A stretch of DNA of 64,000 nt, from positions 104,274-168,273 of the forward strand of contig NZ_JACDSF010000017.1 in the NCBI RefSeq assembly GCF_013449685.1. Direction: 5' to 3'. Positions 1 to 10,223 of this stretch are shown here, piece after piece. The notes beneath the pieces are model-generated. The model was not told the origin of the DNA and searched no databases. It worked only from the letters and a program-made list of their open reading frames with translations. The DNA comes from Pectobacterium brasiliense. Its GTDB lineage: Bacteria > Pseudomonadota > Gammaproteobacteria > Enterobacterales > Enterobacteriaceae. Each line of letters opens with the position of its first letter. The stretch's first letter is position 1. The position numbers were made by a program, and so were the translations under genes.

Positions 1-24
1 TGAAGGTATGAAGGTATGAAGGTA
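1..24. repeat. 8-bp tandem repeat at the left edge
   Basis: Three perfect head-to-tail copies of TGAAGGTA fill the first 24 bases and may continue beyond the window. No gene lies on them here. The rest of 25-230 is non-coding DNA upstream of the PhzF-like gene, and I see no clear promoter in it. Confidence 0.8.
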
Positions 25-230
25 AAGTCTTACCGCAACAATCACCAACAAAGTAGAGTAAAAAGAAATTATTATATATGAAACTGCATGGTGATATTGT
101 TGGTACTTAACACAGCACTTATACTCGAGTCGGAATGTGATTTGGCGCGCATTATGCCACAAGCGCGCGATAGGATCGCGGTTAGTTTTGAGTAATATTT
201 AAGCGATAGCGCATACAGGAGAGAAATGCG

Positions 231-1127
231 ATGCCGATAGTACGTCGTTTCAAACAGGTCGACGTTTTCACCCAGCAGTCTTTCAAGGGCAATCCGCTTG
301 CCGTCATTATGGAGGCGAAGGGATTAACCGATGCGCAAATGCAGGAGATCGCTCGCTGGACAAACCTGTCAGAAACCACGTTTGTCCTGCCAGCCACCGA
401 TCCTTTAGCGGATTACCATGTTCGTATTTTTACGCCAGAATCGGAAATGCCGTTTGCCGGACACCCTACGCTAGGCACCGCGCATTCCCTGCTGGAAGAA
501 GGGTTGCGCCCTAAATCCCCAGGTCAGTTAGTGCAACAGTGCGGCGTTGGCTTAGTGCCAATTAATATTAATGATGACGGCAGTCTGGCTTTTCACGCGC
601 CGCAGGCCACCATGGTTCCGTTTGGTGATGAGCATGCGCCACTGCTGGAAAAAACGCTGGGCATTACTGGTTTGGGTAGTGCCGCTATCGATAACCGCTA
701 CCCGCCCACCGCGGTACACATGGGCATTCGCTGGCTTGTGATTCGCGTCGACAGCGCCGACACTTGCCTGAACATCACACCGGATGCTGAAGCACTCTCA
801 ACCTTGCAAAACCTCAGCCAGACCAACGGCATCGCCATCTATGGCCCCCACGATAATGCGACGCCAGCCGATTATGAAGTTCGTGCGTTCTACATTGAAC
901 GTGGCCATCTCAAAGAAGATCCGGTTACCGGCAGTGCCAACGCCTGTCTGGCAGCGCTGCTTCGCCAACAGCATTCTATCAATAACGTCACCGCGCCACT
1001 CAGCTACCTTGCGCGACAGGGCACCATGCTGCAACGCGATGGCCGCATTACTGTCACTTACCTGAACGATGAACCGTGGATCGGCGGGCACAGCGTCACG
1101 ATCGTTGACGGTACGTTGCAGCGGTAA
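231..1127 (+). CDS. PhzF family isomerase/epimerase-like protein
   Basis: The 298-residue protein has the PhzF fold signatures. NLSETTF at about 45-51 carries the conserved catalytic-type Glu (E48), FAGHPTLG is at about 75-82, and EDPVTGSA at about 229-236 is the second-half motif. The family has two diaminopimelate-epimerase-like halves and includes phenazine-biosynthesis PhzF and many enzymes of unknown substrate. No phenazine genes are nearby, so phenazine synthesis is not supported. The ATG follows GGAGAGAA at good spacing. The acetyltransferase gene starts 13 bases after the stop, so the two probably share a transcript. Family call is strong; the substrate is unknown. Confidence 0.85.
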   Translation: MPIVRRFKQVDVFTQQSFKGNPLAVIMEAKGLTDAQMQEIARWTNLSETTFVLPATDPLADYHVRIFTPESEMPFAGHPTLGTAHSLLEEGLRPKSPGQLVQQCGVGLVPININDDGSLAFHAPQATMVPFGDEHAPLLEKTLGITGLGSAAIDNRYPPTAVHMGIRWLVIRVDSADTCLNITPDAEALSTLQNLSQTNGIAIYGPHDNATPADYEVRAFYIERGHLKEDPVTGSANACLAALLRQQHSINNVTAPLSYLARQGTMLQRDGRITVTYLNDEPWIGGHSVTIVDGTLQR

Positions 1128-1140
1128 AGGGAGCGATTTT

Positions 1141-1701
1141 ATGGAAGCGCCATTTGTCGATACGTCATTTACAGATGCACTGTATGAATTGCGTCATCAG
1201 CCCCACCTGCGCCTAGCGATCCAGGAAGAACGCGATGCAGATACGCTTTTTACCCTGATTCAGCAGGAAAAGGCGCGCTTACGGCGTACTTTACCCTGGC
1301 CGGATTCCGTCAAAAGCGTCGATGACACGCGTGAAACCATTCGCGCCAACCGAAAGGCCTTCTTCTATAAAACGGCCGCCGTGTACATTATTCGCTGGGA
1401 CGACGCGCTGGCTGGCATCGTCTCCTTCAACACGATTCAGGATAAAGAAGGCGTCATCGGCTATTGGATCGCCGAAACCTTTGAAGGCAAAGGCATCGTT
1501 TCTCAGGCTGTCAGTACACTGATAGCCGCCTATACCGATGCAAACCTCGTTGAGCGCAGCGTCATCAGAGCCTCAGCCGCCAACACGCGTAGCAACGCTG
1601 TCGCTCAACGGCTTGGCTTCCGCTTTCACCACACGGAGAAAGACGCTGAGCAGATTGGCGAGCAGTGGTTCGATCACAATATTTATCACTATCCCGCCTG
1701 A
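1141..1701 (+). CDS. GNAT family N-acetyltransferase, RimJ/RimL-like
   Basis: A 186-residue single-domain acetyltransferase that should use acetyl-CoA. The pattern is that of ribosomal-protein-Ser/Ala N-acetyltransferase relatives: an N-terminal R-L-A-I-Q segment, a central G-Y-W-I-A strand near residue 110, the acetyl-CoA loop region FEGKGIVSQAV near 116-126, and the C-terminal N-T-R-S-N-A-V-A-Q-R-L-G-F helix near 152-164. The ATG at 1141 is chosen because AGGGAG precedes it; an in-frame ATG at 1069 lies inside the upstream gene and has no ribosome site. Probably co-transcribed with the PhzF-like gene. Substrate unknown. Confidence 0.8.
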   Translation: MEAPFVDTSFTDALYELRHQPHLRLAIQEERDADTLFTLIQQEKARLRRTLPWPDSVKSVDDTRETIRANRKAFFYKTAAVYIIRWDDALAGIVSFNTIQDKEGVIGYWIAETFEGKGIVSQAVSTLIAAYTDANLVERSVIRASAANTRSNAVAQRLGFRFHHTEKDAEQIGEQWFDHNIYHYPA

Positions 1702-1804
1702 TATGACCTCGCATGCTTTCTACTACCTGATGCGCTGACCTTCCTGCTGCGTATCAGGTTCTTTCGCTCCACGACGTGTTTCATTTATCGTGTCGTTATG
1801 TTTT

Positions 1805-1820
1805 TGTGACTAACGTCACA
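1805..1820. promoter_or_regulatory. Perfect CRP-type operator (site 1)
   Basis: TGTGA-CTAACG-TCACA matches the CRP consensus TGTGA-N6-TCACA in every conserved position and has A/T-rich flanks. Its centre is about 50 bases upstream of the predicted start of the transcript for the small gene at 1907. This is not one of the classical class I or II distances, so the direction of control is uncertain. Confidence 0.75.
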
Positions 1821-1826
1821 AAAATG

Positions 1827-1855
1827 TTGAAATCCGATCTCATCTTCGCTACCAT
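1827..1855 (+). promoter_or_regulatory. Sigma-70-type promoter for the small ORF
   Basis: TTGAAA (1827-1832) and TACCAT (1850-1855) are separated by 17 bases. Transcription would start near 1861-1863, giving a leader of about 45 bases. The promoter sits between two CRP-type palindromes. Confidence 0.5.
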
Positions 1856-1861
1856 TAAAAA

Positions 1862-1877
1862 CGTGATGAACATCACA
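1862..1877. promoter_or_regulatory. Near-perfect CRP-type operator (site 2)
   Basis: CGTGA-TGAACA-TCACA differs from the TGTGA-N6-TCACA consensus at one position. Its centre is 57 bases from site 1. It overlaps the predicted transcription start, so binding there would more likely block than help this promoter. Confidence 0.6.
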
Positions 1878-1906
1878 TTTAACTAACCCGTTAGAGGAGT
1901 CTGATA

Positions 1907-2005
1907 ATGAAAACTTTTCGCAAAATCAGCAAATTCTTTAAAAGAATGGGAGATGTTTATGTCAGTTACTGCGAACGTATTGGGTCAATCATCAGCCCGT
2001 TCTGA
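1907..2005 (+). CDS. Small basic protein of 32 residues, unrecognised
   Basis: I do not recognise this protein. It opens MKTFRKISKFFKRMGDVYVS and ends in a hydrophobic SIISPF. It carries seven basic and two acidic residues (net about +5). The first 20 residues could form an amphipathic helix, which suggests membrane or protein-surface binding (inference). Translation signals are strong: AGAGGAG lies seven bases before the ATG. A promoter, two CRP-type sites and an intrinsic terminator frame the gene, giving a transcript of about 190 bases. That is the size class of dual-function small RNAs. The E. coli small protein AzuC also starts MKxRKIxK and is linked to carbon control, but the similarity is too short to claim homology. 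Confidence 0.65.
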   Translation: MKTFRKISKFFKRMGDVYVSYCERIGSIISPF

Positions 2006-2025
2006 TTGTGATATAAACAATCTCT

Positions 2026-2057
2026 AAAGCCGCCTCCTACAGGCGGCTTTTGTTTTT
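2026..2057 (+). terminator. Intrinsic terminator of the small gene
   Basis: A perfect 10-bp stem (AAAGCCGCCT with AGGCGGCTTT, 2026-2035 and 2041-2050) with a five-base loop is followed by a T-rich run. It lies 20 bases after the stop of the 32-codon gene. Confidence 0.9.
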
Positions 2058-2257
2058 TCAGCTTCTCTTTCACCATGCTCATCCTCCTTTCCTTTTTGTC
2101 TACCTACACGTCGCAGATTGGTGCAGCACGCCGCATGCCTGAACATTCTCTTTTAAAAACAGCTCAATGCATTTTCCTTTCACGGCAAAACCATCTATTG
2201 GGTACAAGGAATACCGGACAAAGAGGATAAGATTCAGGACTAAGGGAAATCGAGAGA

Positions 2258-2281
2258 TGTAGCGGGTAACCCCGCTACATT
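2258..2281. other. Stem-loop downstream of elaB, in the 2006-2317 gap
   Basis: A 10-bp perfect inverted repeat (ATGTAGCGGG / CCCGCTACAT) with a TAAC loop lies 36 bases past the elaB stop. Neither strand has a clear T-run, so it may be a weak terminator or a 3-prime stabiliser. The rest of 2058-2317 shows no ORF or motif I can support. Confidence 0.45.
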
Positions 2282-2317
2282 ATTCCCAGAAATTCAATTA
2301 CCAGAAACTAGAAGGAA

Positions 2318-2629
2318 CTAGCGCTTAGCCAGCAGTAACCCTAATACCAGCCCCACGGTGGCACCAATACCGATACCGTGCCAGGGTTTGTCATGCACAT
2401 AGACGTCGGCTTTGTCGGCCACCTGCTTGGCGCGGGCATAATAACTGTCAGTTACGCCAATACGGGCTTTGACTTCCAGCAGCGCTTTTTCAGCGCCCTT
2501 CTTCAAATCAAGGTAGGCTTGGTCTGCCTGATCGCCCGTATAGCGCAATACCTCATCCAGCGTTTCAGACAGAAGTTTTAAATCATCATCGACACGAATT
2601 TCTTCAGGCTGTTTTTTGGTCGCTGCCAT
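2318..2629 (-). CDS. elaB: ElaB/YqjD/DUF883 family membrane-anchored protein
   Basis: The 103-residue protein has the ElaB layout: a charged alpha-helical, coiled-coil-like body (about 10-75) and one C-terminal membrane segment (about 83-100, GIGIGATVGLVLGLLLAKR). Relatives are tail-anchored inner-membrane proteins, some ribosome-binding and growth-phase controlled (family knowledge). Its place beside nuo is as in E. coli. The start at 2629 is preferred over an upstream in-frame codon at 2659 because GGGAG lies just before it and the ElaB length is matched. Confidence 0.85.
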   Translation of the reverse strand: MAATKKQPEEIRVDDDLKLLSETLDEVLRYTGDQADQAYLDLKKGAEKALLEVKARIGVTDSYYARAKQVADKADVYVHDKPWHGIGIGATVGLVLGLLLAKR

Positions 2630-2767
2630 AAAGTGCTCCCTTCTGTTATGAAAAGTCATGAGTTATAAATCGTTGCCTGATTAACTATAGACAATTTTGC
2701 GCCGTTCCTACGGTTTCAACAGACCAGATCATTCCTAAAACGTATTTGGCTTCCATAAAAAAATGCA

Positions 2768-2811
2768 CGTCGCTTGCGACGGCCCGAAGGGTGGCGAGCA
2801 GGAAGCTCGCC
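2768..2811. repeat. REP-like palindromic element next to the nuo terminator
   Basis: Two small hairpins, CGTCGC-TT-GCGACG (2768-2781) and GGCGAGC-AGGAA-GCTCGCC (2793-2811), flank the core GGCCCGAAGGGTGGC. Nearly the same core follows another palindrome at 24085-24113, so this is a dispersed family rather than chance. Confidence 0.6.
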
Positions 2812-2813
2812 AT

Positions 2814-2844
2814 AAAAAAACGCCGTTGATTCTCATCAACGGCG
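2814..2844 (-). terminator. Intrinsic terminator of the nuo operon
   Basis: Read on the minus strand, CGCCGTTGAT / ATCAACGGCG forms a perfect 10-bp stem with a four-base loop followed by seven T. It sits 31 bases after the nuoN stop. Confidence 0.9.
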
Positions 2845-2875
2845 CTTCATTACTCAAGCAGACTCTCGTCAGTGG

Positions 2876-4333
2876 TTACATCATTGGCTGCGCCAATTGC
2901 ACCAGAGAAATAAGCGGCTGCGGATACAAACCAAAGAACAGTACTGCGATGGAGGAGATCAATACGACTACACCACCAGCAGTTAAAGCCCAGTTGTTTG
3001 GCGTATCACGCTGCAACACCTGCGGCGCATTCAGGAACAAACTGACCATCACGCGCAGATAGTAGTACAGGCCAATGGCGCTACCCAGCACGACCGCACC
3101 AGTCAGCCACCACAGCTCAGCGTTAACACCGACAGCCAGTACGTAGAATTTACCGAAGAAGCCCAGCGTCATCGGAATACCCGCCAGAGACAGCATCATC
3201 ACCGTCATCACCGCAGACAGAATCGGTTTATGCCAGAACAAGCCACGGTAAGAGAACAGTGAGTCGGCATCTGGGCCACGGTACGGGCTGGACATCAGGC
3301 TAACCACACCAAACGCGCCCAGGCTGCTGAACAGGTAACCCACCAGATACACGCCTACGGTTTCCAGTGCCAGTTGATGACTCTGAACCGCAATCAGGGC
3401 AACCAGCAAATAGCCCAAATGCGCGATGGAAGAGTAGCCGAGCAGACGTTTGATGTTGGTTTGCGATACCGCCATCACGTTACCGAACAGGATCGACGCG
3501 AATGCGATGACGCCCAGCACGATTCTGACAGATTCGCTGTCAGCCATCGGCGCATACAGGAACAAACGCATGACTGCACCGAAAACGGCAATTTTACCGG
3601 CCGTCGCCAGAAACGTAGACACAGGTGCAGGCGCGCCCTGATACACATCAGGCGTCCAAAGCTGGAACGGAACCAGAGACAGTTTGAAGCCCAGACCGAC
3701 AATCATCATCCCCAAGCCTGCCAGCAACAGCGGCTCATGGATTTGGTGATCGCTCAGGCTCTTACCGAGGCTGGCAAAGCTCATATCGCCTGATTCAGCA
3801 TAAATCAGCGCCATACCAAACAGCAGGAAGGAAGACGCCGCCGCCGACAGCAGCATGTATTTAATACTGGCTTCCAGCGAACGTTTCAGGCGGAAGGCAT
3901 AACCGACCAGACCAAACAGCGGGAGAGAAAGCAGTTCAATCCCGATGAACAGCGATGCCAGATGGTTAGCGCTCGCCAGCAGGATCCCACCTAACGCAGC
4001 AATCAGAACCAGCAGGTAGAACTCATCACGGTTGTCTGGGTAGCCTTGCAGCCACGGATAGGCAAACGTGCTGGTTGCCAGACTGGCAACCAGAACCAGT
4101 CCGGTATAGAACATCGAGAAGCCATCAACACGCAGCAGCGGCGTCACGTCCGTTGGGCCAACCTGGCCGACAAAGTACAGTGACAGCAACGCAATATTCA
4201 GGCCGATAACCGTCATGGTTGCGTTGACAAAATGGTTGCGTCGCCACGCAATGCACAGCATCACAACCACTACCGTCAATCCGACGATCAACAGCGGCGA
4301 TAGCGCAATTAGTTGTTGAAGAGTTATTGTCAT
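2876..4333 (-). CDS. nuoN: NADH-quinone oxidoreductase subunit N
   Basis: NuoN is one of three antiporter-like, proton-pumping membrane subunits of respiratory complex I. The 485-residue sequence is hydrophobic throughout, with about 14 helices. It keeps the proton-translocation family core, such as [20 protein letters not shown] in the middle and the GLYYYLRV helix near the end. Length equals the E. coli protein. It is the last gene of the operon, starting 6 bases after nuoM and followed by a strong terminator. Confidence 0.97.
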
Positions 4334-4339
4334 GGCGAA

Positions 4340-5875
4340 TTACGGCCTTGTTGTTGAAATAATTGAATCTGGAGCAGACGACATAAACCACTGCTGGATA
4401 TTTGACATCGCGGCACTGGAGGTATCCAGAATCGGTTGCGGGTAAACCCCTAACAACACCAGTAATACCACCAACAGCATCACGATAGACAATTCGCGGA
4501 GCGACATACTCTTCAATGGTTCATCAGATTTAGGCGTACCGTAATAAGCACGCTGAATCATGATCAGTGAGTAGACCGACGCGAATACCAGACCGAAGGT
4601 TGAGATCACCGTAATCACCGGCACAACCTGATAGCTGCCGAACAGAATCATGAATTCGCCGACAAAGTTACCCGTGCCCGGCATACCCAAGGTTGCCACA
4701 GCAAAGAACAAAGACAGCGCAGGCAGGAACTTCAGACGCGACCACAGGCCGCCCATTTCACGCATGTCACGGGTATGCAGACGCTCGTACAGCTGACCAC
4801 ACAGAATGAACAGACCGGCAGCGGACAAGCCGTGCGCAATCATCTGGATCACCGCGCCCTGATAAGCCAGTTGATTACCGGAATAGATGGCAATCATCAC
4901 GAAGCCCATGTGGGACACAGAGGTATAAGCAATCAGACGCTTGATATCCGTCTGTTTAAACGCCAGCCAGGCACCGTAGAAGATACCAATCACGCCCAGC
5001 CACATGGCAATCGGTGCAAAGGCATGGGAAGCATTCGGGAACAGCGGCAGGCTGAAACGCAGCAGACCATAGGCCGCCGTTTTCAACAGTATCCCTGCCA
5101 GGTCAACAGAACCCGCCGTTGGCGCCTGACTGTGTGCATCCGGCAACCAACCGTGCAACGGCACGACAGGCATTTTTACAGCAAATGCGATGAAGAAGCC
5201 CAGCATCAGCAGATATTCAACACCGTATGACATCGGCGTCTTCAGCAGGTCTTCATAGTTGAACGTCCACACGCCGGTGGCATTGTGATGCACAAAGACC
5301 AGCGCCAGAATCGCGATCAACATGATCAGGCCACTTGCCTGGGTATAAATGAAGAACTTGGTTGCCGCCGTAATTCTGGTTTTACCGTCGGAGCCTTTAT
5401 GCCCCCACAGTGCAATCAGGAAGTACATCGGTACCAGCATCATCTCCCAGAAGAAGAAGAACAGGAACATGTCGATGGCAAGGAACACACCGATAACGCC
5501 GCCCAGAATCCACAGCAGGTTCAGGTGGAAGAAACCCTGATAGCGCTGAATTTCATTCCAGGAACAGAGGATTGCCAACACGCCCAGCAGCCCCGTCAGC
5601 ACGACCATCAGCAGCGACAGGCCATCCAGCGCAAGATGGATACCGATGCCGAAGCGTGGAATCCATGGCACATAAAACTCGGATTGCCATTGTGGCACGC
5701 CTGTCGGCGCCGTCAGAGAGTAACCGCCTTGCAACCACAGTTGCAGAGACAGTGCGAGTGTCAGCCCCATTGCAATCAACGCTATCCAGCGCGGTACTTT
5801 CGTACCAAAACGCTCTAACTGCCAGCACAGCAGACCGCCGATAAAGGGGAGAAGAATTAGCCAAGGTAGTAGCAT
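4340..5875 (-). CDS. nuoM: NADH-quinone oxidoreductase subunit M
   Basis: The 511-residue antiporter-like subunit of complex I moves protons across the inner membrane. The key charged membrane residues are visible: E144 in FFFFWEMMLVPMY and K234 in AFAVKMPVVPLHGWLPDAHS, the signature of this family. Length and sequence match enterobacterial NuoM. It lies between nuoL (100-base gap with a small hairpin) and nuoN (6-base gap). Confidence 0.97.
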   Translation of the reverse strand: MLLPWLILLPFIGGLLCWQLERFGTKVPRWIALIAMGLTLALSLQLWLQGGYSLTAPTGVPQWQSEFYVPWIPRFGIGIHLALDGLSLLMVVLTGLLGVLAILCSWNEIQRYQGFFHLNLLWILGGVIGVFLAIDMFLFFFFWEMMLVPMYFLIALWGHKGSDGKTRITAATKFFIYTQASGLIMLIAILALVFVHHNATGVWTFNYEDLLKTPMSYGVEYLLMLGFFIAFAVKMPVVPLHGWLPDAHSQAPTAGSVDLAGILLKTAAYGLLRFSLPLFPNASHAFAPIAMWLGVIGIFYGAWLAFKQTDIKRLIAYTSVSHMGFVMIAIYSGNQLAYQGAVIQMIAHGLSAAGLFILCGQLYERLHTRDMREMGGLWSRLKFLPALSLFFAVATLGMPGTGNFVGEFMILFGSYQVVPVITVISTFGLVFASVYSLIMIQRAYYGTPKSDEPLKSMSLRELSIVMLLVVLLVLLGVYPQPILDTSSAAMSNIQQWFMSSAPDSIISTTRP

Positions 5876-5922
5876 GGCGTTTTGTGTCCCTAAATTAAAG
5901 AAATCTGAAAACTTGCCGTGGC

Positions 5923-5947
5923 GGGCATCCCTATCTGCGGAATGCCC
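5923..5947 (-). other. Hairpin in the nuoL-nuoM spacer
   Basis: GGGCAT and ATGCCC pair around a 13-base loop within the only sizeable gap of the distal nuo operon. There is no T-run, so it may affect mRNA processing or stability rather than end transcription (inference). Confidence 0.35.
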
Positions 5948-5975
5948 TACCTTTTATACGTTACCGGATACTGCC

Positions 5976-7823
5976 TTAGACCAGCAGTAACAAGGCCAGC
6001 ACCAGCACGGCACCAAAGCCCATAGAAGCAACGTACCAGCGCAACTGACCATTCGCACTGAGCGCCAGCCCACGGTTACCCCAACGGGTGATCGTAGCCG
6101 GAAGCGTCATCAATGCATTTAACGGATCACGCTGCAACAGCTTCGCGATAGCCAGATACGGTTTCACAAAGACATGGTCGTACAACCAGTCGAAGCCCCA
6201 CGCGTGGAACCACCAGGTCGAGAAGAAACGACCTGGAGCACTCTTCGCGATGCTGCTCACCGCCTGACGTTTACCCAGCCACAGCACAGCAGCAAGCAGA
6301 ATACCGGCAATCGCCACCATGCCAGAGGTAATTTCCAGCGTCATCAACTGGCCGTGTTCAAGCTCTGTCGTCGCTGGTAATACACCGTGCAACGGCGGAA
6401 CAATCATCGCACCAATAAAGGTGGACAGAATCATCAGCACAACCAGCGGTAAGTGGTGAGAAATGCCTTTTCCTGCATGCGCTTTGGTTTTCTCTTCACC
6501 GTGGAACACGATGAAAATCATACGGAACGTATACAGCGAGGTCATGAAGGCACCGGCCAATCCAGCCACCATCAGATTGACGTGACCATTTGCCCATGCG
6601 CCAGCCAGAATCTCGTCTTTACTGAAGAAGCCTGCGGTAACCAACGGCAGTGCAGCCAACGCCGCGCCCCCGACCAAGAAGCAAACATAAACCAGCGGAA
6701 TCGTTTTACGCAGGCCGCCCATCTTGAAGATGTTCTGCTCGTGGTGGCAGGCCAGAATCACCGAACCAGACGAGAGGAACAGCAGCGCTTTAAAGAACGC
6801 GTGCGTCATCAGGTGGAAAATCGCGGCATCCCATGCCTGAACGCCCAGCGCCAGGAACATGTAACCAATCTGACTCATGGTAGAGTAAGCCAAGACGCGC
6901 TTGATGTCGGTTTGAACCAGAGCGGCAAAACCCGCCAGCACCAGCGTTACTGCACCCACAATCCCTACCAGATGCAGAACATCCGGTGCCATCAGGAAGA
7001 GGCCGTTTGTACGCGCAATCAGGTAAACACCCGCGGTAACCATCGTCGCGGCGTGGATCAGTGCAGATACCGGAGTTGGACCGGCCATTGCATCCGCCAG
7101 CCAGGTTTGCAGCGGAAGCTGTGCCGATTTACCGACCGCACCACCCAGCAACATCAGCGTAGCCCAGGTGATTTCCGGTGAACCCTCAGCCAGTTTCTGC
7201 GGTGCCAATACCATCAGCTCGCGGAAGTTAAGCGTACCCAGTTCTTTGTAAAGGATGAACAGGGCAAAGGCGAGGAAGACGTCACCCACACGCGTAACGA
7301 TGAAAGCTTTCATCGCCGCCGCGCCGTTCTTCGGATTGGTGTAGTAGAAACCGATCAGCAGGTAACTGCACAGCCCCACCCCTTCCCAACCGAGGTACAT
7401 CAACAACAGGTTATCCGCCAGTACCAGAATGACCATACTCGCGATGAACAGGTTGGTGTAGGCGAAGAAGCGGGAATATCCCTCTTCCCCACGCATGTAC
7501 CAGGAGGCAAACAGGTGGATAAAGAAACCAACGCCCGTTACAACGGACAGCATCGTCACCGAAAGGCCATCGAGCGTCAACGTTACGCTGATGTCGAAGT
7601 TGCCAACGGCCATCCATGTCCACAAATGCTGATTAAAGAAGGTCACGCCACCGTGCTGTTGGCCCATGAAATCGACCACAACCCAAGCGGTAACCAACGC
7701 TGCCAGACCAATCGAGCCAACACCGACAGTCGCGGACGTATTTTCCGACCAGCGACCGCGAGAAAATGCCAGCAACAGAAAGCCGAGCAGCGGGAAGAGT
7801 ATTGTTAAATAGAGTAAGTTCAT
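5976..7823 (-). CDS. nuoL: NADH-quinone oxidoreductase subunit L
   Basis: NuoL is the distal antiporter-like subunit of complex I, which carries the long lateral helix along the membrane arm (family knowledge). The 615 residues include the conserved Glu in YLGWEGVG (E147, equal to E. coli E144), the [20 protein letters not shown] helix with its key Lys, and a C-terminal extension ending in a membrane anchor. The nuoK stop overlaps the nuoL start by four bases, implying coupled translation. Confidence 0.97.
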
Positions 7824-8122
7824 CCGCGCATCTCACTGACTGTATCAATATTCAGGGTCTGACGACGACGATACATTTGCAGCAACAGTGCCAGACCAAT
7901 ACTGGCCTCAGCCGCTGCCAACGTAATCGCCAGAATGTACATCACCTGACCATCCGGCTGCTGCCAGTAACTGCCTGCGACGACAAAAGCCAGCGCGGCA
8001 GCATTGATCATAATTTCGAGACTGATCAACATAAACAGCAGGTTACGGCGAATCAACAGACCAGTCAGCCCCAGAACAAACAGGATAGCGGCTAAAATTA
8101 ACCCATGTTGTAACGGAATCAT
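7820..8122 (-). CDS. nuoK: NADH-quinone oxidoreductase subunit K
   Basis: A 100-residue, three-helix membrane subunit of complex I homologous to MrpC. The conserved membrane Glu residues of the second and third helices are present in [14 protein letters not shown] and [14 protein letters not shown]. It overlaps nuoJ upstream and nuoL downstream by four bases each. Length is the family standard. Confidence 0.97.
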
Positions 8123-8679
8123 GCGCGTTCCCCCGTTATTTTCTTCTCAACGTCCTGGTTCGCGCCTTCTTTACTGACAACGTCACCACGTTTATCTTCA
8201 CGACCAATGTGGAAAGCGACAACCAATCCCGCCAGCAGCAGCATTGATGCCAATTCAACAGCCAGAACATAAGGACCAAACAGGCTGATACCCACGGCTT
8301 TCGCCTCAACTGGCGTACCCGTTATGCCCTGCTCTTTCAGGCTAAGGATGGCATTGACGACAATCACCAGTAACGCCAGTGAAAGAATGCTCGGACCGAT
8401 CCAGACGCTAGGCTTCAGCCAATTCCGCTCTTGTTCTTCTACGGAATTACCGAGGTTGAGCATCATGACCACGAATACGAACAGCACCATGATGGCACCT
8501 GCATACACGATGATGCTCAGCGCGCCGGCAAAATTAGCCCCCAGCGAGAAAAATACGCCCGCAATCGCCATAAGCGAGGTGACCATATACAACAATGCAT
8601 GCACAGGATTGGTATGCGTAATGACGCGCAATGTCGCCAGTATCGCAATCAAGCCTGTGGTATAAAAAGCGAATTCCAT
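8119..8679 (-). CDS. nuoJ: NADH-quinone oxidoreductase subunit J
   Basis: A 186-residue membrane subunit of complex I with five predicted helices and a polar C-terminal tail (after about residue 165) rich in Lys, Glu and Asp. The helix with [16 protein letters not shown] is the conserved flexible segment near the quinone and E-channel region. It starts 9 bases after nuoI and overlaps nuoK by four. Confidence 0.96.
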
Positions 8680-8688
8680 GCTAGCTCC

Positions 8689-9231
8689 TTAGGGCAACAG
8701 GCCTTTGACATCAATGGGTTTGGCTTCGTTTTCAGCTTCGCCTTTGTCTTTCCCATCGATTGCCATACCAGCCATCCGGTAGAAATTGTATTCCGGATAT
8801 TTACCCGGCCCCGATATCAGCAAATCTTCTTTCTCGTACACCAGATCCTGACGTTTGTAGTCGCCCATCTCGAAATCCGGCGTCAGTTGGATAGCGGTTG
8901 TAGGGCACGCTTCTTCGCAGAAGCCACAGAAAATGCAGCGCGAGAAGTTGACGCGGAAGAACTCCGGATACCAGCGACCATCTTTGGTTTCCGCTTTCTG
9001 CAATGAGATACAGCCGACCGGACAGGCCACCGCACACAGGTTGCAGGCAACGCAACGCTCTTCACCATCAGGATCACGCGTCAGCACGATACGACCACGA
9101 TAGCGCGGCGGTGGATTCACAGGCTCTTCTGGATACATTCTGGTTTCGCGCTTCTTAAAAGCATTCGATCCCACCATACAGATACTGCGTATCTGGGTGC
9201 CGAAACCAACCACTAACTCTTTCAATGTCAT
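8689..9231 (-). CDS. nuoI: NADH-quinone oxidoreductase subunit I
   Basis: A 180-residue iron-sulfur subunit at the junction of the peripheral and membrane arms. Two 4Fe-4S motifs are complete: C60, C63, C66, C70 ([12 protein letters not shown]) and C99, C102, C105, C109 ([12 protein letters not shown]), forming clusters N6a and N6b that pass electrons to NuoB. Length matches E. coli. Confidence 0.97.
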
Positions 9232-9248
9232 GGTTTATTCACCCCTTC

Positions 9249-10223
9249 TTAAGCGTTGTACAAAATGACGGCCGCTGTCGCCAGCAGATTCAAAAGCGTT
9301 ATCGGCAGACAGACTTTCCAACCGAAAGACATCACCTGGTCATAACGCGGACGGGGTAACGAAGCACGAATCAGGATGAACATCATCATGAAAAAGCCTG
9401 TTTTCAGCGCAAACCAGACAAACGGAGGCAGGATTGGACCATGCCAGCCACCGAAAAATAAGGTCACCATCAGCGCGGAAACAGTCACGATCCCGATATA
9501 TTCCCCGACAAAGAACAGACCGAATTTCATACCGGAGTATTCAATGTGGTAACCATCTGCCAGTTCCTGTTCAGCTTCAGGCTGGTCAAACGGGTGACGG
9601 TGACACACCGCCACGCCTGCGATGGCAAACGTAATAAAGCCGAAGAACTGCGGAATCACGTTCCACAGGTGTTCCTGAGAATCGACGATGTCACGCATGT
9701 TGAACGAGCCCGCTTGCGCGACAACCCCCATCAACGACAGGCCGATGAACACTTCGTAGCTTACGGTTTGAGCAGAAGCACGCACCGCACCCAGCAGCGA
9801 GTATTTGTTGTTACTTGCCCAGCCAGCAAACAGCACCGCGTAAACGGCCAAACCCGCCATCATCAGGAAGAACAGGATACCGATGTTCAGATCGGCGACA
9901 CCCCAGGTTGGCGTGATCGGCACAATCGCAAAGGCAATCAGCATTGACGTAAACGCGATCATCGGTGCCAGCGTGAAGATCACCTTATCGGTGAAATTCG
10001 GCACCCAGTCTTCTTTGAAGAACATTTTGATCATGTCAGCGACAAGCTGCAATGAACCGCCCCAACCTACCCGGTTCGGTCCATAACGTCCCTGGAAGAG
10101 GCCGAGCAGTCGACGTTCACCCATACTCATGAATGCGCCACAGGTCACCACAACCAGCAGAATCACGATCGCTTTTCCGACGGAGATCAGAATTTCGATT
10201 AATTCCGGTGTTAACCAACTCAT
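9249..10223 (-). CDS. nuoH: NADH-quinone oxidoreductase subunit H
   Basis: A 324-residue membrane subunit of about eight helices that forms much of the quinone chamber. The invariant loop [20 protein letters not shown] is intact, as are GRYGPNRVG near the N-terminus and [13 protein letters not shown] near the C-terminus. It overlaps nuoG by four bases. Confidence 0.97.

What the first reader, a model, noticed from the sequence alone, without database searches (positions are those of the whole stretch)
1801..2057. Unrecognised 32-codon gene bracketed by two CRP-type palindromes
Seen: TGTGA-N6-TCACA (perfect) at 1805, a promoter-like TTGAAA/TACCAT, CGTGA-N6-TCACA overlapping the likely transcription start, AGAGGAG before an ATG, 32 codons, then a perfect 10-bp terminator. 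The unit is a complete, isolated transcript of about 190 bases. Known: small CRP-controlled transcripts can encode both a small protein and a regulatory RNA, as E. coli AzuCR does. Inference: this may be a carbon-responsive small membrane-associated protein or dual-function RNA. The second CRP site suggests repression or a switch rather than simple activation.
Basis: partly seen in the sequence, partly recalled or inferred. Interest (0 to 1): 0.7.

Follow-up and report, generated by a model that had tools for sequence, protein, structure and literature searches.

The report
CRP-bracketed 32-residue microprotein gene
A real but unrecognised 32-residue protein gene of soft-rot bacteria sits between two conserved binding sites for the sugar-signal regulator CRP, and the same promoter design stands before other tiny genes in related bacteria, which points to a shared set of probably sugar-switched microproteins.

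Summary
The 32-codon ORF is a genuine gene: it is in 25 of 25 Pectobacterium genomes searched and in Samsonia, Symbiopectobacterium and Dickeya records, usually just behind a phzF-like and/or GNAT gene. It is under strong purifying selection (pN/pS 0.18; 0.07 for codons 8-32; other sense frames 0.96-1.83). Both CRP-like sites are intact in 33 of 34 distinct loci at almost fixed spacing. No Pfam, NCBIfam or gathering-level Rfam family covers it.

Searching for the promoter layout alone gave 28 hits in 149 genomes, one per genus (reversed-pattern control 0), and 27 of 28 precede a 16-52-codon ORF with a ribosome-binding site. The window's genome has two such units plus a true AzuC. The 32-mer resembles a microprotein of the other unit and, weakly, AzuC. 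AzuC and VcdP are reported products of CRP-repressed genes that stimulate metabolic enzymes. Best reading: a CRP-repressed, glucose-on amphipathic microprotein that binds a partner protein. In Pectobacterium the 20 bases after the stop are nearly invariant and synonymous sites are slow, so an RNA role is possible. Regulation, start site and partner are untested inference.

The parts
1802..1823 (+). CRP site 1 (core TGTGA-CTAACG-TCACA 1805-1820), centred about -48.5 from the inferred start, directly upstream of the -35
   Evidence: sequence; mean pairwise difference 0.059 in the genus; GTGA-N6-TCAC-N6..8-TTG in 34 of 34 distinct loci
1827..1832 (+). -35 hexamer TTGAAA
   Evidence: no difference within the genus
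1850..1855 (+). -10 hexamer TACCAT (mostly TAnnnT in relatives, by eye)
1861..1861 (+). likely transcription start (inferred from -10 spacing)
   Evidence: inference only
1859..1880 (+). CRP site 2 (core CGTGA-TGAACA-TCACA 1862-1877), centred about +9.5, covering the inferred start
   Evidence: difference 0.041 in the genus; intact in 33 of 34 distinct loci, degenerate in one insect symbiont, L142
1893..1899 (+). ribosome-binding site AGAGGAG
   Evidence: a Shine-Dalgarno-like motif in 34 of 34 distinct loci
1907..2005 (+). 32-codon microprotein gene, MKTFRKISKFFKRMGDVYVSYCERIGSIISPF (stop included in coordinates)
2006..2025 (+). near-invariant 3' element TTGTGATATAAACAATCTCT; a 6-bp hairpin can form at 2004-2022, or it can pair with codons 15-20
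   Evidence: two sequences only in 25 genus loci, 21 and 4; difference 0.014; folds
2026..2057 (+). intrinsic terminator, 10-bp stem and T tract
   Evidence: by eye the stem is kept through paired changes in other genera

Best explanation
The unit is a monocistronic microprotein gene probably repressed by CRP-cAMP. One CRP dimer sits against the upstream edge of the -35 and a second covers the start site, 57 bp away centre to centre, so with high cAMP RNA polymerase is blocked and with PTS sugar (low cAMP) about 197 nt of mRNA is made. It is translated into a 32-residue basic amphipathic peptide whose first helix probably lies on the membrane surface and whose conserved tail (YVSYCERIGSIISPF) binds a partner protein, most likely an enzyme or transporter of carbon or respiratory metabolism, as AzuC (GlpD) and VcdP (GltA) are reported to do. 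Shown: coding, conservation, promoter layout, recurrence with other microproteins. Inferred: CRP occupancy, repression, start site, membrane position, partner. In Pectobacterium the RNA may carry an extra function in its 3' end.
For: Coding: 25 of 25 genus genomes; pN/pS 0.184 over 26 distinct ORFs, 0.070 for codons 8-32, against 1.83 and 0.96 in the other sense frames; 0 of 200 column shuffles as low. Conserved upstream neighbours in 25 of 25 genus loci. Layout GTGA-N6-TCAC-N6..8-TTG-N30..34-GTGA-N6-TCAC: 22 of 149 family genomes, one per genus (28 hits), and 12 of 394 order genomes; reversed-pattern control 0 in both. Of the 28 family hits 27 precede a 15-60-codon ORF (16-52 seen) with a ribosome-binding motif, start 20-50 nt downstream, against 1 of 52 for looser CRP pairs and 125 of 3840 random places. 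Own genome: second unit at C148 and an azuC at C115. azuC loci elsewhere carry a CRP-like site (at most 1 mismatch) at the same offset from a TTG in 40 of 42 loci checked. Profile comparison: 32-mer vs second ORF of the other unit, probability 92%, E 6e-7, 0 of 100 column shuffles as good. Amphipathicity of residues 1-18: moment 0.74, reached by 0.04% of shuffles. Repression of vcdRP by CRP bound upstream of the -35: PMC8672173 section 8; azuCR repression and the GlpD role: passage of its Discussion.
Against: No expression, binding or protein data here. A site near -48 is not excluded as an activator site, and site 1 could activate while site 2 represses. The direct link to AzuC is weak (probability 18.6%; the best of 100 shuffles equals it to the printed decimal), and the AzuC model does not hit the window protein. 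The two azuC loci without the same offset include the window genome's own azuC. The profiles compared are short, shallow and amphipathic, so composition may help the scores.
Confidence: 0.6

Rival explanations
1. Dual-function RNA: the transcript encodes the peptide and also base-pairs with other mRNAs through its 3' end, like VcdRP, SgrS/T or AzuCR.
For: The 20 bases after the stop differ by 0.014 within the genus, as little as the stretch between -10 and start (0.013) and more than the -35 alone (0); two variants in 25 loci. Synonymous divergence of the ORF is 0.167 against 0.380 in the neighbouring GNAT gene of the same 21 genomes, below every 32-codon GNAT window examined (minimum 0.273). 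The whole transcript folds better than shuffles (z -3.7). The terminator ends in a T tract.
Against: The 3' element is absent outside Pectobacterium and Samsonia while the protein persists. Without promoter-side leader and terminator the fold is unremarkable (z -1.4; -1.9 to +0.9 in 7 relatives). No VcdR-type CCCC in the window's 70 nt after the stop (4 of 25 genus loci and 7 of 34 overall have one). No other near-complementary site in the genome at up to 3 mismatches in 20 (a weak test). High expression alone can slow synonymous change.
Confidence: 0.3
2. CRP switch or activation: site 1 activates at moderate cAMP and site 2 at the start represses at high cAMP, giving a pulse.
For: Two sites, one perfect and one with a mismatch, both conserved.
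Against: Site 1 at about -48.5 is at neither of the standard activating positions (-41.5, -61.5; recalled). For vcdRP a site upstream of the -35 is shown to repress, and azuCR is stated to be CRP-repressed.
Confidence: 0.25
3. Purely regulatory RNA or leader: the ORF is incidental, or a leader peptide of an attenuator.
For: Sub-threshold Rfam hits, best Phe_leader with 30 bits against a gathering score of 55.
Against: Strong protein-level selection. In the window the next large ORF (ElaB-like by recall, 2318-2659) is convergent, so there is nothing to attenuate.
Confidence: 0.03
4. Small toxin or type I toxin-antitoxin peptide: a basic amphipathic peptide harmful when overproduced.
For: Short, amphipathic and cationic, net charge +5.
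Against: One match per genome in 25 of 25 genus genomes, conserved upstream neighbours, a metabolic-type promoter, no family hit in Pfam or NCBIfam. No search for an antisense partner was made beyond frame statistics.
Confidence: 0.05

Closest known systems
AzuC / AzuCR (E. coli; NCBIfam NF033642)
   Same: 28-residue basic amphipathic microprotein from a small stand-alone transcript; CRP-type site abutting the -35 at the same offset (40 of 42 azuC loci checked) and, in E. coli and its nearer kin by eye, a second CRP-like site in the core promoter; stated to be CRP-repressed, AzuC activating GlpD (PMC8672173 Discussion passage)
   Different: Second site lies inside the -35/-10 spacer, not over the start; tail is PPGxM, not GSIISPF; the family model does not hit the 32-mer; the window's genome has its own azuC
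VcdRP / VcdP (Vibrio cholerae)
   Same: 29-residue microprotein on a CRP-repressed transcript, CRP site upstream of the -35 (PMC8672173)
   Different: 306-nt transcript with a four-cytosine pairing site, not present in the window; sequence of VcdP not seen; no relative in the genus taken for Vibrio with a combined profile
Second CRP-bracketed unit of the same genome (MKLLNKIIAMFENININFGTFNQ + MRVVRKINQILKALGKTYRGVNPHAIFR), found here
   Same: Same promoter layout; second peptide aligns to the 32-mer (probability 92%)
   Different: Two ORFs in a row, other locus (C148); the first ORF also stands alone in other genera
Spot 42 / SpfP
   Same: CRP-repressed small transcript (PMC8672173) that encodes a 15-residue protein (PMC11188072 passage)
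   Different: 15-residue ORF, best known as a base-pairing RNA; no Rfam hit at gathering score in window 1-10000

Membership tests
AzuC (NF033642) | match to the curated family model at 30 bits or more | tested here: not met
   window protein: 0 NCBIfam families at E up to 10; E. coli AzuC scores 75.9, own-genome azuC 48.8
AzuC (NF033642) | C-terminal PPGxM/PPGxL tail (as seen in the azuC loci fetched) | tested here: not met
   tail is GS[IV]ISPF in 17 of 18 and GTDVSPF in 1 of 18 distinct proteins
AzuC (NF033642) | CRP-type site abutting the -35 of a small transcript | tested here: met
   GTGA-N6-TCAC-N6..8-TTG in 34 of 34 loci of this family; same offset in 40 of 42 azuC loci
AzuC (NF033642) | protein binds and activates GlpD | not testable with these tools
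   none
VcdRP | VcdP homology | not testable with these tools
VcdRP | four-cytosine pairing site in the 3' part | tested here: not met
   no CCCC in the 70 nt after the stop in the window; 4 of 25 genus loci and 7 of 34 overall have one
CRP-repressed promoters | conserved CRP-type sites at the promoter | tested here: met
   33 of 34 distinct loci have both
CRP-repressed promoters | CRP binding and repression | not testable with these tools
   none
CRP-bracketed microprotein genes (defined here) | strict two-site layout followed by a ribosome-binding motif and a 15-60-codon ORF | tested here: met
   27 of 28 strict hits, the window's included

The most novel reading that the evidence does not exclude
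Enterobacteria hold a previously unrecognised regulon of AzuC-superfamily microproteins marked by a stereotyped CRP-bracketed promoter, several members per genome in the soft-rot group, each induced when cAMP is low and each tuning a different enzyme of central metabolism; the window gene is one branch, with its partner perhaps a respiratory or TCA protein.
Probability: 0.35. Interest if true: 0.75.

Novelty: new variant of a known kind. Interest (0 to 1): 0.6.

Why it matters
Very small proteins are often missed by annotation and by homology search. Here the promoter itself is a better beacon than the protein: one DNA pattern gave 28 hits in 149 genomes, 27 of them before a tiny ORF. If the members are CRP-repressed enzyme modulators, as AzuC and VcdP are reported to be, then sugar status would reach central metabolism through a whole set of peptides, testable gene by gene. 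For soft-rot bacteria, where CRP is a known virulence regulator (recalled), it adds an unstudied output of the same regulator.

Tried and rejected
Order-level profile search: 178 of 394 genomes had something at E up to 1, but only 3 (all the same genus) were strong. The centre of 9 further loci was printed and 27 loci of that search (L047-L073) were scanned for a CRP pair, none having one; they are treated as chance. In the family search 19 of 149 genomes matched at E up to 1: 6 strong, 13 weak, of which one (G136) on inspection has a CRP pair and a related-looking 27-mer.

Gene order with nuoN: my first idea of a fixed place beside nuoN was wrong. phzF-like and GNAT genes lie just upstream in 25 of 25 genus loci, but ElaB-like and nuoN genes are within 1.5 kb downstream in only 3 of 25, and within 3 kb in 1 of 10 longer Pectobacterium loci.

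E. coli: blastn of two loci of the MKLxNKIIA gene found nothing in 5,426 genomes. There a CRP-plus-TTGA pattern in two genomes gave 7 places, none looking like vcdRP, and a combined profile in 31 genomes gave no recurrent hit.

Rfam: nothing at gathering score in window 1-10000; 7 hits below gathering in 1780-2080. Trans target of the 3' element: only its own locus, with 1 hit for the reversed control. Antisense frame 1 also shows a low ratio (0.19), read as the usual shadow of the codon register, not a second gene. AzuC against the 23-residue family was not clear (3 of 100 shuffles as good, probability 2.9%), and the second peptide against the 23-residue family only 3.4%.

Papers: in PMC4710047 (P. 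atrosepticum sRNAs) and PMC9239193 (Dickeya transcript map) I searched six terms each and saw passages only; none showed this transcript. Their supplementary tables were not opened (no look-ups allowed). The AzuCR paper itself is not held. I found no print mention of this gene in searches, of which I saw the listings; the library holds only open-licence papers. PMC11188072 was seen as passages and one section.

Structure prediction was never run: the machine was busy each time.

Full report
WHAT IS THERE. Taken singly, the sites are not remarkable for 64 kb. Conservation is what makes them real.

IT IS A GENE. The protein is in 25 of 25 genomes of the genus, one match each. The genus is Pectobacterium: 10 of these loci are identical over the compared region to records named so. 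One genome per genus across the family gave 6 of 149 strong matches, own included. Named records add Samsonia, Symbiopectobacterium, Dickeya and one labelled Serratia marcescens whose protein is identical to that of two Symbiopectobacterium records (17 loci from 36 candidate stretches). Of 47 loci extracted, 34 regions are distinct, with 18 distinct proteins. Neighbours: phzF-like and GNAT genes just upstream in 25 of 25 genus loci and in Samsonia; GNAT alone in the Symbiopectobacterium-type loci; phzF-like alone in Dickeya; neither found beside the most divergent form, L030. Downstream order varies: ElaB-like and nuoN genes lie within 1.5 kb in 3 of 25 genus loci and within 3 kb in 1 of 10 longer ones. 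The names phzF, ElaB and nuoN are recalled; GNAT rests on Pfam. Pairwise pN/pS is 0.184 for 26 distinct 32-codon ORFs from 31 loci (two 29-codon forms and L030 were left out), 0.070 for codons 8-32 and 0.476 for codons 1-7; the other sense frames give 1.83 and 0.96, and none of 200 column shuffles is as low. Antisense frame 1 also gives 0.19, the usual shadow of the codon register.

THE PROMOTER. Both CRP cores are intact in 25 of 25 genus loci and 33 of 34 overall; the exception is an insect symbiont with a decayed second site. The pair is 71 bases long in 29, 72 in 3 and 70 in 1 of the 33. Within the genus, mean pairwise difference is 0.059 (site 1), 0 (-35), 0.120 (spacer), 0.050 (-10), 0.041 (site 2), against 0.283 upstream and 0.511 downstream. 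With the start inferred at 1861, site 1 is centred near -48.5 and site 2 near +9.5.

THE SAME LAYOUT STANDS BEFORE OTHER MICROPROTEINS. A looser search suggested, and a strict one (GTGA-N6-TCAC-N6..8-TTG-N30..34-GTGA-N6-TCAC) showed, 28 hits in 22 of 149 family genomes, one per genus, with none for the reversed pattern, and hits in 12 of 394 order genomes, again with none reversed. Of the 28, 27 are followed at 20-50 nt by a ribosome-binding motif and an ORF of 16-52 codons; looser pairs that fail the strict pattern do so in 1 of 52, random places in 125 of 3840. Three kinds appear: the window family; a 23-residue MKLxNKIIAxFxxxxxxFGTFNx-like family, alone or followed by a 27-28-residue peptide (like MRVVRKINQILKALGKTYRGVNPHAIFR); and single oddities. 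The 23-mer and the second peptide are also under purifying selection (pN/pS 0.30 for 21 distinct and 0.30 for 6 distinct). The window's genome has the window unit and a bicistronic unit at C148. Outside the family two order genomes matched: one has a 27-codon ORF starting 132 nt downstream (L148), the other no such ORF (L159).

RELATION TO AzuC. The AzuC model NF033642 finds a real azuC in the window's genome at C115 (48.8 bits) and is over its cut-off in 46 of 149 genomes. In 40 of 42 azuC loci checked a CRP-like site (at most one mismatch) is followed after 6-8 nt by TTG, the same offset as here; the two exceptions are the window genome's own azuC and that of Samsonia, which have a CRP-type site farther from any TTG. 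In E. coli and its nearer kin a second CRP-like site lies inside the spacer (by eye). By profile comparison the 32-mer aligns best with the second peptide of the C148 type (probability 92%), that peptide with AzuC (74%), the 32-mer with the 23-mer (73.5%), and the 32-mer with AzuC directly only weakly (18.6%); column shuffles reached the observed score in 0 of 100 for each of these four, though in the last the best shuffle equals it to the printed decimal. AzuC vs 23-mer was not clear (3 of 100), and second peptide vs 23-mer had probability 3.4% (0 of 100). These are short shallow profiles, so common descent is likely only for the first pair and possible for the rest.

MECHANISM. PMC8672173 (abstract, passages, section 8, section 29 and part 1 of 2 of the Discussion read) reports that CRP bound upstream of the -35 represses vcdRP, that VcdP binds and stimulates citrate synthase, and that azuCR is CRP-repressed with AzuC stimulating GlpD. 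The window promoter has that upstream site plus a second one on the start. I therefore infer repression at high cAMP and expression on PTS sugars. Residues 1-18 form a strongly amphipathic basic helix on paper (moment 0.74; 0.04% of shuffles reach it), and residues 18-32 are nearly invariant except in L030, which suggests a membrane-surface helix and a partner-binding tail. No structure could be predicted.

RNA ROLE. Within the genus the 20 bases after the stop come in two forms differing at one base (21 and 4 of 25), and synonymous divergence of the ORF is 0.167 against 0.380 in GNAT from the same 21 genomes (4 of 25 genus loci lacked a gap-free near-full GNAT alignment), whose lowest 32-codon window examined is 0.273. 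The element can form a small hairpin or pair with codons 15-20; folding without the terminator is ordinary. It is shared with Samsonia only. A pairing role in trans is possible in that lineage; a search of the own genome for near-complements found only the locus itself.

VERDICT. The gene is absent from the family libraries searched and was not met in the papers I could search (listings, with passages in 35, 54, 55). It is a new variant of the AzuC/VcdP kind of CRP-controlled microprotein gene, and the recurrent promoter is the more interesting part.

Noticed in passing
L104 minus strand from 1944 (own genome C148:197887-197957): Second CRP-bracketed unit in the same genome, bicistronic: MKLLNKIIAMFENININFGTFNQ then MRVVRKINQILKALGKTYRGVNPHAIFR; the same arrangement shows in at least 5 other genera.
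   Followed up: yes
L110-L117, L119, L120, L149-L152, L157, L158: A 23-residue gene (MKLxNKIIA...FGTxNx and close variants) alone behind the same promoter in other genera of the family; two of these loci gave no blastn match in 5,426 E. coli genomes.
   Followed up: partly
L211 (own genome C115:25587-25664): A GTG-started azuC (KVRNFFKKMLAAYLNTYKNVPPGALF) with a CRP-type site upstream, but not at the usual offset from a TTG.
   Followed up: partly
L148 from 1501: In another family of the order the same promoter layout precedes a different 27-codon ORF, MVGSNASYWFAHALYTQSFQYPNPFRR, 132 nt downstream.
   Followed up: no
L121 minus strand from 1946: A CRP pair of slightly different geometry before MKLMKKINKLMKELGDIYLEAAKVTKY, resembling the first half of the window protein.
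   Followed up: partly
L118 from 2068: Strict promoter before a 52-codon ORF whose last part (LPWLHQLLQMLGQNFVGAGKRMY) looks like a microprotein behind a polar leader.
   Followed up: no
L003-L008, L131, L133, L135-L141: Downstream of the unit most Pectobacterium loci lack the ElaB-like and nuoN genes within 1.5-3 kb, so this interval varies between species; what replaces them was not studied.
   Followed up: no
window 2757-2850: Palindromic stretch between the ElaB-like gene and nuoN, including GGCGAGCAGGAAGCTCGCC and a terminator-like hairpin.
   Followed up: no
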